From Halorarum halophilum (GTDB lineage: Archaea; Halobacteriota; Halobacteria; Halobacteriales; Haloferacaceae), in contig NZ_CP058530.1 of the NCBI RefSeq assembly GCF_013401515.1, forward strand, positions 186,001 to 250,000: a stretch of 64,000 nucleotides of DNA, read 5' to 3'. Position 1 is the stretch's first letter. Every line of letters starts with the position of its first letter. Below, piece by piece: positions 38,407-54,697 of the stretch. The position numbers were made by a program, and so were the translations under genes. The notes under the pieces are model-generated. The model had not been told where the DNA came from and ran no database searches. It saw nothing but the letters and a program-made list of their open reading frames with translations.

Positions 38407-38430
38407 AAAAGCACTCGAAAAGTGGTGTGT
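38407..38430 (-). repeat. Isolated ORB-like element 13 kb from the origin
   Basis: On the minus strand it reads ACACACCACTTTTCGAGTGC and then TTTT, differing from the ORB consensus (ACACCGGTTTTCGAGTGCTT) at only two positions. It sits just past the ModE-like stop, beside the 9-bp iterons. Confidence 0.68.
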
Positions 38431-39904: not shown

Positions 39905-39924
39905 CATACGAACCAGTTTGTATG
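39905..39924. promoter_or_regulatory. 20-bp operator-like palindrome over the parA start codon
   Basis: CATACGAACCAGTTTGTATG pairs at eight of ten positions with a G-T at one more; its last three bases are the parA ATG. A related half-site, CATACAAACAAGTTGTGG, lies near 39834. It is probably an autoregulatory operator. Confidence 0.6.
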
Positions 39925-40725
39925 ACCGATTCGTCTCGGACGCCGACGGTGGCCGTCTCGAACCAGAAGGGGGGCGTCGGCAAGACGACCACGGCCATCA
40001 ACGTGGGCGGGGCGCTGAACGAGCGCGGGAACGACGTGCTGTTCGTCGACCTCGACCCGCAGGGGAACGCGACCGAGAACCTCGGGATGATGGACGCGTA
40101 CGACGCCGAGCCGCCGACGCTGTTCGACTGTCTCACCGACCCGGAACAGCGTGACGCGATCCACGACATCGTCCACGAACACCCGGAGATGGACGTGCTA
40201 CCGTCGAACATCGACATGACCGCCGCGGAGCCCGAACTCACCCTCTCGCGGCGGAGCGGGGAGCAGCTCGCGTTGCTGCTCGACCGCGTGGAGGACGACT
40301 ACGACTTCGTCGTCGTCGACTGCCCGCCGAACCTCGGGAACCTGATGGACAACGCGCTGTACGCCTCGCGGAACCTCCTCATCCCGGCGCTCGCGGAGTC
40401 CACCAGCAAGCGGGCGTTCGAGCTCCTGTTCGACCACGTGGAGGCGCTGGAGCTGGACTACGGCATCACCATCGAGGAGCGCGGGGTCGTCGTGAACCGC
40501 ATCGACGTGCGCAAGAACCAAGCGAAGGAGATGGTCGAGTGGATCAACGAGGCGTTCGACGGCGTCCCCGTCTGGGAGGTTCGCGAGCGCGCTGCCGTCC
40601 AGAAGGCGCTCGAGGAGGGCTCCTCGCTCCTCCGGTACGATCCTGAGTGCGACATGTGCGAGGTGTTCCTCGACATCGCCGCCGACCTCGAGGAGCAGTT
40701 CGCGACCCGGGAGGTGGAAGCATGA
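39922..40725 (+). CDS. ParA/Soj-family partition ATPase
   Basis: 267 aa. The deviant Walker A is NQKGGVGKTTTAINVGGAL with both signature Lys; Walker A' is LFVDLDPQGNATENLG; Walker B is DFVVVDCPPNLGNLMD. There is no N-terminal HTH, as in short type Ib ParAs and archaeal SegA. The stop overlaps the next start as ATGA. ATG 39922 lies in a palindromic operator; the open frame further upstream is repeat-derived. Such ATPases pattern the nucleoid and move DNA bound by the partner protein. Confidence 0.92.
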   Translation: MTDSSRTPTVAVSNQKGGVGKTTTAINVGGALNERGNDVLFVDLDPQGNATENLGMMDAYDAEPPTLFDCLTDPEQRDAIHDIVHEHPEMDVLPSNIDMTAAEPELTLSRRSGEQLALLLDRVEDDYDFVVVDCPPNLGNLMDNALYASRNLLIPALAESTSKRAFELLFDHVEALELDYGITIEERGVVVNRIDVRKNQAKEMVEWINEAFDGVPVWEVRERAAVQKALEEGSSLLRYDPECDMCEVFLDIAADLEEQFATREVEA

Positions 40726-51712: not shown

Positions 51713-51914
51713 ACACCAGTTTGCAAGTGCTTCTCGGGGCCTCGATTTCGCGCATCTCACCGGGTTAGCACTCGAAAACCGGTGTGTCGAAGCGGTCGTT
51801 ACCCGTAGACGAGGGCGATTCGGCCCGGTGACACCGGTTTTCGAATGCTTCGACCGGGGACGGCGGCGGGTAGCGCGTAGCTACCAGTCCGTAAGCATTT
51901 GAAAACTGGTGTGT
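51713..51914. repeat. Four ORB elements downstream of orc1
   Basis: ORB1 51713-51732 (+), ORB2 51767-51787 (-), ORB3 51831-51850 (+), ORB4 51893-51914 (-). The consensus with the other five is ACACCGGTTTTCGAGTGCTT. Orientation alternates, giving two inverted pairs. Confidence 0.82.
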
Positions 51915-52084
51915 CTGTGGACCGATAGACCGTCGGCGGAACTATCGAGTGGGCCTCTGGGAAGGCGCGTCGGATTCGGGGGTGGGTCGGTTCAGGGCTG
52001 GGTCGATCGGGTCGAGTCGAATCGGGATCAGGTCGAATCGGATCGGGCCGAGTCGAGAGTGGGTCGAATTCGAGTGCGATCACC

Positions 52085-53374
52085 TCAGTCCTCGGAGAGG
52101 CCGGCGCGGACGAGGATGTTGTCGAGTTCGAGTTCGACGTCGTTCGTCGGGAGGTCGGAGCTGTCGATGGCGTCCTTCACCTGGCGGACGGTGAGCGCTT
52201 CGGACAGTTCGTACGTGTTGTACTGGCCGCCCCGCAGCCCCTCGTTGTTCTGGAACGACTGGAGGAAGCCGAGCATGTCGAGCCGGGTGAGGTGATTGTA
52301 CATCCCGCGCTGGCTCAGCGGGTCGTCGCCGGCGGCGGAGGCGAGCTGCTCGTAGATGGCGTGGATCGCCTTCGTCCGGACCGGGGTGCGGCCGTCCGCC
52401 TCGAGCCTCGCGACGGCGTCGATGATGAGCTGCTTGTGCTGGTCCTGGTCGATGATGGACTCGACCATGTCGCCGTAGTCGAGCTCCTCCTTGGCGGCGT
52501 ACACGTCGTCCGGTTGGATCGGCATGTTGCCCACGTTCTCGGCGTGTTCGGCCGCCTGCTTCAGGAGGTCCATCGCGCGGCGGGCGCTCCCGGAGGAGTT
52601 CCGCATCGCGAGCGCCGCGCACAGCGACAGCACCTCCTTGTCGTACGTCTCGTCGTGGAGCGCGTTGTTCGCGCGGGCCGCGATGATCTCCTCCAGCTCG
52701 TCGGCGCTGTAGGCGGGGAACTTGATCTCCGTCTCGCACAGCGTATCGCGCACCTTCGGCGAGAGGTTCGAGCGGAACGTGTAGTCGTTGCTGATGCCGA
52801 TGAGCCCGATCCGGGTGTCCTCGACGTAGCCGATGTCGCGGGCCCGCGGAAGGTCGTACAGCAGCGTGTCGCTCTCGCCCACCCGGTCGACCTCGTCGAG
52901 CACGATGAGCACCGTACCGCCGATGTCGTCCAGTTCCTCGTACAGCATCGAGTACACCTCTCGGGAGGCGTACCCCGTCGAGGCGATCTGGTCGTCGCGG
53001 AACTCGTTGACGAGAGCGATCGCCACCTGGTACGAGGAGGCCGTCCCGTCCGAGGGGGCGATGTTCTGGCAGTTGATCCGGACGTGCGTGAACGTCCGCT
53101 GGTCGTCGGCCGGCCGGTCGGCGTTGCGCTCGCGGATGTCCGACTCGAGTTCTCGGAGCAGGTACTTCGTCGCGGCCGTCTTCCCGACACCCGTGTCCCC
53201 GTAGAGGAACGCGTTCCGCGGCGGCCGGCCCTTGTACACCGGCTTCAGCGCGTTCACGTAGTTCTGCATCACGTCGTCGCGGCAGAGGATCTCCTCGGGG
53301 GTGTGCTCCTCCGTGAAGAGGTCGGCGTCGCGGATGATCTCGACGTCGTCCTCGAAGATGGAGTTCGACCCCAT
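52085..53374 (-). CDS. Orc1/Cdc6 replication initiator
   Basis: 429 aa from MGSNSIFEDDVEIIRD. AAA+ motifs are Walker A YGDTGVGKTAATKYLL, Walker B GTVLIVLDEVDRVGES and sensor 1 IGLIGISNDYTFRSNL; sensor 2 is near SSGSARRAMDLL. A C-terminal winged helix (about 330-429) would bind ORBs. The ATG at 53374 is chosen because the frame upstream is made of origin repeats. It binds the flanking ORB elements and loads the replicative helicase. Phased 10-bp repeats just upstream (53414-53495) suggest autoregulation. Confidence 0.94.
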   Translation of the reverse strand: MGSNSIFEDDVEIIRDADLFTEEHTPEEILCRDDVMQNYVNALKPVYKGRPPRNAFLYGDTGVGKTAATKYLLRELESDIRERNADRPADDQRTFTHVRINCQNIAPSDGTASSYQVAIALVNEFRDDQIASTGYASREVYSMLYEELDDIGGTVLIVLDEVDRVGESDTLLYDLPRARDIGYVEDTRIGLIGISNDYTFRSNLSPKVRDTLCETEIKFPAYSADELEEIIAARANNALHDETYDKEVLSLCAALAMRNSSGSARRAMDLLKQAAEHAENVGNMPIQPDDVYAAKEELDYGDMVESIIDQDQHKQLIIDAVARLEADGRTPVRTKAIHAIYEQLASAAGDDPLSQRGMYNHLTRLDMLGFLQSFQNNEGLRGGQYNTYELSEALTVRQVKDAIDSSDLPTNDVELELDNILVRAGLSED

Positions 53375-53413
53375 TGTATCCCGTGTCGGACACGAAGTGG
53401 ATAAAGCTAGTCC

Positions 53414-53495
53414 TTTCGAGTGCTTTCGAGTGCTTTCAAGTGTACCCCGGTCGTTTCGAGTGCTCTGCGAGTGACTGCGAGTGACTGCGACTGTT
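53414..53495. repeat. 10-bp phased mini-ORB repeats at the orc1 promoter
   Basis: TTTCGAGTGC occurs at 53414, 53424 and 53454 with TTTCAAGTGT at 53434, then TGCGAGTGAC at 53466 and 53476 and TGCGACTGTT at 53486. Each core equals the distal half of the ORB consensus, with near helical spacing. Confidence 0.75.
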
Positions 53496-53536
53496 TTCCC
53501 GTACCCAGGATTATCCGCCGAAATCGGCCGAATCGA

Positions 53537-53695
53537 ACACCAGTTTTCGAGTGCTTTCGGTGACGGCACGGGGATACCGGCCTGATATCGCGTCGGAGCG
53601 GTACTGGTCGGCGGTCGTGGGTCGAGCACCGATCGTGGGTCGAGCGCCGAACGCGAGTCGAGTCCCCCCGTCCACACACCAGTTTTCAAGTGCTT
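53537..53695. repeat. Two ORB elements upstream of orc1 (ORB5, ORB6)
   Basis: ORB5 at 53537-53557 (ACACCAGTTTTCGAGTGCTT) and ORB6 at 53676-53695 (ACACCAGTTTTCAAGTGCTT), both on the plus strand. Confidence 0.82.
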
Positions 53696-54109
53696 GATGG
53701 GAGGGGCAAGATTCGCGGGGTCTGATCGAGGGCACGAACGACGCCAGTAGTGTGGAGGGGTTGTCTCAGGGGTCAGGGGGCCGTGTGGCGGCGGAAACCC
53801 GGATGGGATGGGAAACATCGGGCAGTCGATGGGTTTCGGGAGGTACCAGGGAGCGGAAACGCCTGCAGATGGCGATCTCCTCGCCGGAGGCCGCCAGGAG
53901 ACCGTGAATGGCGGGGATCGAACCCCATCAGTTGCGGCCAGGAGCGCTAGGGGCGGGCGGAGTGTGATCCGATCACGACCTGCTCGTGCTTCCTCGGGTT
54001 GGCAGTCGTCCGGCGGAACACGGGGTGGCGGGGGCGATTCGAGACGCCGGCTGTCGGTCCAGGAACTCGCGAGTAAGTGAGGGACGGGACGGTGATCCCG
54101 GACACCCCC

Positions 54110-54438
54110 ACACCGGTTTGCAAGTGCTTTCGATCGGGGGCGTCCGTCGGAACTCGTGCCGGCGGAACCGACGGTTCCGATCACGGTATAAACAGCCGAT
54201 TGGATACACGTGAGGTTAGTCGATTATTCGAGTGGAATCGCACGACTACAGACAGTCGTAATCCGGACAACACTACACTACTACTAGACTAGAAGAAAAT
54301 GTTATAATAAGGAAAGAGATCGATCCGGTTCCAGTTGCCACCCGACCCGCCTCGGCCCGCGTCTCCGACGCCTCGTCCCCCCGCCGCCGGCGAATCCCGA
54401 CCCTCCCTTCGACAGGAAAAGCACTCGCAAACCGGTGT
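54110..54438. other. Core origin: inverted ORB7/ORB8 flanking an AT-rich unwinding candidate
   Basis: ORB7 (54110-54130, plus) and ORB8 (54418-54438, minus) face each other across an AT-rich stretch. The richest part is 54272-54316, with ACTACTAGACTAG and GTTATAATAAGG. Inverted ORBs around an AT-rich element beside orc1/cdc6 is the established layout of haloarchaeal origins. Confidence 0.75.
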
Positions 54439-54676
54439 GAGGGGGTCCCCGACAGACAGACACCCGTTCGATGTAGACAGGATCCGCGGACCGGTGTCCA
54501 CCACTCGCCACGGTCCCCGACGCTGAACGGCCGCCTCGACTGTTATACGCCCCGAACTCCGATCCTGCCACCGAGGGATCGCCCTCTCTCACCGACAACA
54601 TTCGTGCACACTCCCGGTCGAGGAGCACCGACCCTCGCCGGAACTGCGATCGAACTGACGCGACAGCCGTCCGGAC

Positions 54677-54697
54677 ACACCGGTTTTCGAGTGCTTT
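54677..54697 (+). repeat. ORB9
   Basis: ACACCGGTTTTCGAGTGCTT followed by T, a perfect consensus copy and the outermost element on this side. No gene is supported between 53375 and 55267; frames there translate repeats or have no domains. Confidence 0.82.

What the first reader, a model, noticed from the sequence alone, without database searches (positions are those of the whole stretch)
51713..54697. A replication origin with nine ORBs around orc1/cdc6 and an AT-rich core
Nine copies of ACACCGGTTTTCGAGTGCTT-like elements flank the initiator gene. ORB7 and ORB8 face each other across the only clearly AT-rich stretch (54190-54316). Four more ORBs in two inverted pairs lie on the far side of the gene, which may make a second nucleation zone.
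Basis: partly seen in the sequence, partly recalled or inferred. Interest (0 to 1): 0.7.

Follow-up and report, generated by a model that had tools for sequence, protein, structure and literature searches.

The report
Self-titrating origin of a haloarchaeal plasmid
This is the replication start site of a roughly 264-kb plasmid in a salt-loving archaeon, carrying its own initiator gene, an easily melted core and an unusually well conserved set of initiator-binding sites that probably both start replication and hold it in check.

Summary
In detail: nine ORB copies lie exactly where stated (0 expected in shuffles) around an Orc1/Cdc6 gene (52085-53374, minus). The window belongs to a 263,745-bp contig, apparently a plasmid, with this as its only Orc1/Cdc6.

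Two Halobaculum plasmids (Orc1 97% identical, intergenic DNA largely diverged) keep the same nine-ORB order and polarity, the AT-rich core between the facing pair, and the downstream quartet. Relatives in Halobaculum (chromosomal in H. litoreum), Halogranum and Haloprofundus keep the facing pair and one or two downstream ORBs. An Orc1-dependent origin is very likely.

The 'second nucleation zone' is not supported: gaps between the downstream ORBs are 33-45 bp, 26-33% AT and unconserved. They resemble Haloarcula hispanica oriC2D, which has no origin activity and represses its origin, probably by initiator titration.

New here: (i) a 10-bp-pitch half-ORB array at the orc1 promoter, conserved in Halobaculum and shorter in two more genera, suggesting self-repression; (ii) two distal ORBs, one in the window at 38409, kept in all three plasmids as conserved islands.

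Skew support is mixed: three of four measures peak at this origin on its own plasmid, none on the two relatives. Activity is untested.

The parts
52085..53374 (-). orc1/cdc6 initiator gene, 429 aa
   Evidence: Pfam Cdc6_lid, Cdc6_C, AAA; nearest solved structures are 2qby and 2v1u, archaeal Cdc6/Orc1; only TIGR02928 match on the contig
54110..54129 (+). ORB7, left member of the facing pair
   Evidence: facing pair kept in all 16 closest relatives
54419..54438 (-). ORB8, right member of the facing pair
54130..54418 (.). core between the facing ORBs; contains the AT-rich stretch 54190-54316 (putative unwinding element)
   Evidence: 59% AT stretch, top 0.04% of the contig; AT maximum falls between the facing ORBs in 16 of 17 loci
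54270..54309 (.). conserved island inside the core (TATTATA ... CTAGT.TAGTAGTAGT.AGTGT on the minus strand)
   Evidence: 83% invariant columns among three plasmids against 26% for non-ORB upstream sequence
54677..54696 (+). ORB9, outer upstream ORB
53676..53695 (+). ORB6
53537..53556 (+). ORB5, promoter-proximal ORB
53415..53483 (-). half-ORB array: six copies of [CT]ACT[CT]G[AC]A on a pitch of about 10 bp, in front of orc1; putative autoregulatory operator
   Evidence: 6 copies against 0.015 expected, densest cluster of the contig; conserved in both plasmids and in Halobaculum, three-unit version in Halogranum and Haloprofundus
51893..51912 (-). ORB4, downstream quartet
51831..51850 (+). ORB3, downstream quartet
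51766..51785 (-). ORB2, downstream quartet
51713..51732 (+). ORB1, downstream quartet
   Evidence: quartet order conserved, 88% of ORB columns invariant against 15% outside
38409..38428 (-). distal ORB 'B', 13 kb from the origin cluster and 1.5 kb from parA
   Evidence: counterparts at NZ_CP134951:190956 and NZ_CP058580:176292; 89% of ORB columns invariant against 26% in the flanks
39922..40725 (+). parA partition ATPase gene, linked to distal ORB B
   Evidence: 93% identical to the H. salinum plasmid ParA

Best explanation
This is the single Orc1/Cdc6-dependent replication origin of a plasmid of about 264 kb. The initiator binds the upstream ORBs. The facing pair ORB7/ORB8 brackets a core of about 290 bp, where the AT-rich stretch with its conserved TATTATA/TAGTAG island melts and MCM is loaded. 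The other initiator sites act as brakes: the four downstream ORBs and the two distal ORBs soak up initiator, and the half-ORB array covers the orc1 promoter so that the initiator represses its own gene. Shown: the sites, their arrangement and their conservation. Inferred: binding, melting, titration and self-repression. The confidence given is for the origin itself; for the downstream quartet as a titrating brake I would say about 0.6, for self-repression about 0.6.
For: Nine ORBs, none expected by chance; only Orc1/Cdc6 of the contig. Same order and polarity of all nine (-,+,-,-,- | orc | +,-,+,- in gene orientation) in two Halobaculum plasmids whose intergenic DNA has largely diverged. Facing pair in all 16 closest relatives, with the AT maximum between its members in 16 of 17 loci; spacing 242-245 bp in eight Halobaculum loci, 240-242 in Haloprofundus, 299-310 in the plasmids. 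ORB and core polarity match the oriC1-type origin of the same genome, G-end pointing outward. The ORB changes together with the Orc1: GCACTCG in Halobaculum, ACATTTG in Halogranum, AACTCAG in more distant relatives, always followed by the same other half. On C2, AT, purine and keto strand contrasts are strongest within 0-4 kb of this origin or of the point opposite (p 0.002, 0.011, 0.036). In H. litoreum the homologous origin lies within 40 kb of a GC-skew inversion with no other Orc gene in 400 kb. Precedent for a negative downstream ORB cluster: H. hispanica oriC2D (PMC3936714). Half-ORB array.
Against: No functional data. Plain GC skew shows nothing on C2 (p 0.65), and no skew measure points significantly to the origin in the XH14 or H. 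salinum plasmids. Closure of C2 as a circle was not shown (no end overlap). Other types of plasmid replication protein on C2 were not searched for. The negative roles of the downstream and distal ORBs and of the promoter array are by analogy.
Confidence: 0.85

Rival explanations
1. The downstream quartet is a second site of initiation, perhaps working as a two-part origin with the upstream core.
For: Two inverted ORB pairs with the same facing polarity as the core pair, conserved in three plasmids. ORBs downstream of orc/cdc6 are reported in several haloarchaea (PMC3528665).
Against: Gaps of 33, 45 and 42 bp at 33, 33 and 26% AT, unconserved (15% invariant). Halobaculum relatives have only one ORB there and Halogranum/Haloprofundus two in tandem. 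The tested counterpart oriC2D alone gave no autonomous replication (PMC3936714).
Confidence: 0.06
2. A dormant or degenerate origin: the structure is intact but this replicon replicates from something else.
For: Dormant haloarchaeal origins with good ORBs are known (oriC4 and oriC5 of H. hispanica, PMC3528665). Skew is weak in two of three plasmids.
Against: Only Orc1/Cdc6 on the contig; strong conservation of sites against diverged spacers in three plasmids; conserved initiator with intact motifs. The single-origin H. hispanica replicon pHH400 cannot lose its oriP (PMC3936714).
Confidence: 0.08
3. The distal ORBs and the half-ORB array are sites of some other DNA-binding protein, or neutral relics, and not Orc1 sites.
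For: Distal ORB A lies in the promoter-side gap of a VOC gene behind nikR, so it could be an ordinary operator. Only three genomes carry the distal pair.
Against: Distal ORBs keep the full 19-bp ORB (89-95% invariant) while flanks are 26-27% invariant. ORB B stays although its neighbour gene differs: the 3-oxoacyl-ACP synthase beside it in both relatives is not found on C2, and in the relatives it lies between convergent 3' ends. The half-ORB repeats change with the ORB in Halogranum and Haloprofundus.
Confidence: 0.2

Closest known systems
Haloarcula hispanica oriC2-cdc6E with oriC2D (PMC3936714)
   Same: Origin upstream of a cdc6 gene plus a separate ORB cluster directly downstream of the gene.
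   Different: oriC2D has 11 ORBs in 722 bp on a main chromosome; here four ORBs in two inverted pairs on a plasmid, plus distal ORBs and a promoter half-ORB array, which the passages I read do not describe for oriC2. Whether Cdc6E and its ORBs belong to the same family was not tested.
Haloarcula hispanica oriP-cdc6K of the 406-kb plasmid pHH400
   Same: Single cdc6-linked origin of a large plasmid. The Orc/Cdc6 at the start of the 406-kb H. hispanica plasmid record NC_015944 is 45% identical to this Orc1.
   Different: 45% identity is far below the 80% used to define origin families by Wu et al. 2012 (PMC3528665).
orc1-linked origin of Halobaculum litoreum (chromosome) and related Halobaculum
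   Same: Orc1 about 84% identical, same ORB, same facing pair and AT core, same half-ORB promoter array.
   Different: On the chromosome in H. litoreum; six to seven upstream ORBs and one downstream, core spacing 242-245 bp, no conserved distal ORB pair.
Escherichia coli datA and the DnaA boxes of the dnaA promoter (as cited in PMC3936714)
   Same: Working analogy: initiator-binding sites away from the origin that titrate, and sites in the initiator promoter that autoregulate.
   Different: Unrelated proteins; analogy only.

Membership tests
orc/cdc6-associated haloarchaeal replication origin | Adjacent orc/cdc6 gene | tested here: met
   Pfam and TIGR02928 matches
orc/cdc6-associated haloarchaeal replication origin | Inverted ORB repeats in the adjacent intergenic region | tested here: met
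orc/cdc6-associated haloarchaeal replication origin | AT-rich unwinding region between inverted ORBs | tested here: met
[quoted passage not shown]
   ORB ends in CCGGTGT, followed by G-enriched sequence (44% G in the next 12 bases), but a real G run occurs in only some copies
orc/cdc6-associated haloarchaeal replication origin | Autonomous replication or marker-frequency peak | not testable with these tools
   no reads, no experiment
oriC2/oriC2D-type origin with negative downstream ORB cluster | ORB cluster directly downstream of the cdc6 gene | tested here: met
   four ORBs at 51713-51912, conserved in three plasmids
oriC2/oriC2D-type origin with negative downstream ORB cluster | Cluster lowers origin activity | not testable with these tools
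   inferred from PMC3936714
oriC2/oriC2D-type origin with negative downstream ORB cluster | Initiator in the same family as Cdc6E (80% identity) | not tested
   Cdc6E sequence was not retrieved

The most novel reading that the evidence does not exclude
The plasmid has a three-layer initiator budget written in DNA: a titrating ORB quartet beyond orc1, an autorepressing half-ORB array in the orc1 promoter, and two conserved distal ORBs (one near parA, one 50-85 kb away, both on the same side of orc1 and in the same orientation) which count replicon copies or couple origin firing to fork passage or partition.
Probability: 0.3. Interest if true: 0.7.

Novelty: new variant of a known kind. Interest (0 to 1): 0.45.

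Why it matters
How archaeal plasmids and secondary chromosomes with Orc1/Cdc6 initiators set their copy number is poorly known; the one genetically tested negative ORB cluster I found is oriC2D. Here a natural comparison is available: the same origin family on a chromosome (one downstream ORB) and on plasmids (four downstream, two distal), with a conserved half-ORB array at the initiator promoter. Deleting each layer gives a direct test of initiator titration and autorepression in archaea.

Tried and rejected
Second nucleation zone: rejected as unlikely on gap length, composition and lack of conservation. GC skew as proof: GC alone is uninformative on C2, and other measures are significant on C2 but not on the relatives. 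The G079/G069/G036 (Haloprofundus group) distal ORB-like sites were tested as counterparts of distal ORB A, but nikR and VOC are not there. The G112 site 681895 has a CHY zinc-finger gene about 2.3 kb away as near ORB A in the plasmids, but no nikR/VOC, and no counterpart appears in other Halobaculum genomes. First genome-contig scan with the single protein found nothing; the alignment scan worked. Low ORB invariance in the upstream alignment (65%) is partly misalignment of ORBs where spacing differs.

Full report
Setting. The window is bases 186001-250000 of contig C2 of a 4.28-Mb assembly in four contigs. C2 is 263,745 bp; C1 is 3.68 Mb. C2 has one Orc1/Cdc6 gene, the one in the finding; C3 and C4 have one each and C1 has several. 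The closest relatives of the Orc1 are on circular plasmids of Halobaculum sp. XH14 (196 kb, 96.7%) and Halobaculum salinum (239 kb, 96.5%). C2 is therefore most likely a plasmid of a close relative, although its closure was not shown.

Observation. Nine ORBs are found at the stated places and none is expected by chance. Allowing up to 3 mismatches, all close copies in the genome are on C2: the nine, plus two distal ones at C2:154632 and C2:224409 (window 38409); the one hit elsewhere is a 3-mismatch match on C1.

Conservation in the plasmids. In gene orientation the order is -,+,-,-,- upstream and +,-,+,- downstream in all three plasmids. Each plasmid has exactly nine origin ORBs and two distal ORBs. 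Intergenic DNA has diverged: outside ORBs 26% (upstream) and 15% (downstream) of alignment columns are invariant, against 65% and 88% inside; the 65% is lowered by misalignment. The strongest non-ORB islands are the half-ORB array with the orc1 promoter (53402-53441, 85%; 53455-53484, 70%) and the core element 54270-54309 (83%).

Wider conservation. The ORB also accompanies Orc1s of 83-84% identity in Halobaculum (H. gomorrense, H. saliterrae, H. litoreum; chromosomal in H. litoreum), and variants accompany Orc1s of 54-59% in Halogranum and Haloprofundus. The facing pair is found in all 17 loci, and the AT maximum lies between its members in all but L104. Core spacing is nearly fixed in Halobaculum (242-245 bp). 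One or more ORBs downstream of the gene occur in all of these and in many more distant relatives. Across relatives down to about 50% identity the half GAAAACCGSTGT is constant while the other half varies with the Orc1 lineage, as expected for initiator and site evolving together.

Polarity. Written as AAGCACTCGAAAACCGGTGT, the ORB can be laid on the classical haloarchaeal ORB (core, then G-rich end), and in the facing pair its G-end points away from the core. The oriC1-type origin of the same genome (C1, L155:6036-6204) has the same polarity and its AT maximum in the same place.

Skew. On C2 the contrast between the two half-replicons is maximal within 0-4 kb of the origin or the opposite point for AT, purine and keto content (block-shuffle p 0.002, 0.011, 0.036) but not for GC (p 0.65). 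In XH14 and H. salinum no measure is significant and the maxima lie elsewhere. Four measures, not independent, on three plasmids were tried, so this is modest support. In H. litoreum the cumulative GC skew turns at 838-845 kb, the origin being at 808 kb, and no other Orc gene lies in the 400 kb examined.

Half-ORB array. Upstream of the orc1 start lie six copies of [CT]ACT[CT]G[AC]A at 53415-53483, with steps of 10, 10, 20, 11 and 10 bp; 0.015 are expected, and it is the densest cluster on C2. The array is present in both plasmids and all eight Halobaculum loci; Halogranum and Haloprofundus have GCATTTGAAACACRTGAAGCACTTGAAA or a close form, in their own ORB spelling. It overlaps the presumed promoter (CTAGCTTTATCC). 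Self-repression by Orc1 is the natural reading; it is inferred.

Distal ORBs. A lies between nikR and a VOC gene in all three plasmids, 50-85 kb from orc1; B lies 14-23 kb from orc1, 1.5 kb from parA in C2 and H. salinum and about 5.5 kb in XH14. Both are on the same side of orc1 and in the same orientation in all three. ORB columns are 95% and 89% invariant, flanks 27% and 26%. B is kept although the neighbouring gene differs on C2. They are not conserved in the chromosomal Halobaculum genomes. Their role is unknown; titration, or a link with partition or fork passage, are candidates.

Mechanism. The upstream half is the working origin. The downstream quartet most resembles H. hispanica oriC2D, which could not be deleted while oriC2 was present, had no ARS activity and lowered plasmid copy (PMC3936714); the authors propose initiator titration and compare it with datA (PMC4010727). 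The chromosomal form in Halobaculum has one downstream ORB and the plasmid form four plus two distal, so the plasmid form may be under tighter control; this is a hypothesis.

Limits. No functional data; only three genomes with the plasmid form are held; non-Orc plasmid replication proteins were not searched; the Cdc6E family link was not tested; the literature library holds only openly licensed papers, so absence of a prior description of the half-ORB array or distal ORBs is weak evidence of novelty.

Noticed in passing
window 38409-38428: Tenth ORB, distal, beside a TOBE-domain gene and 1.5 kb from parA; conserved in two related plasmids.
   Followed up: yes
C2:154632-154651 (outside the window; L033): Eleventh ORB, ACCCC variant, between nikR and a VOC gene, conserved in two related plasmids.
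   Followed up: yes
window 53415-53483: Array of half-ORBs on a 10-bp pitch in front of orc1, conserved across genera.
   Followed up: yes
L090, L091, L092 (Haloprofundus-group genomes G079, G069, G036): ACCCC-type distal ORB 250-280 kb from the homologous origin in three genomes; not beside nikR/VOC.
   Followed up: partly
G077:C2:115408 and 115508: Two ORB-like sites 100 bp apart on a second contig of a Halobaculum genome, possibly a related origin.
   Followed up: no
L110-L132: ORB halves evolve separately: GAAAACCGSTGT constant, the other half changes with the Orc1 lineage.
   Followed up: partly
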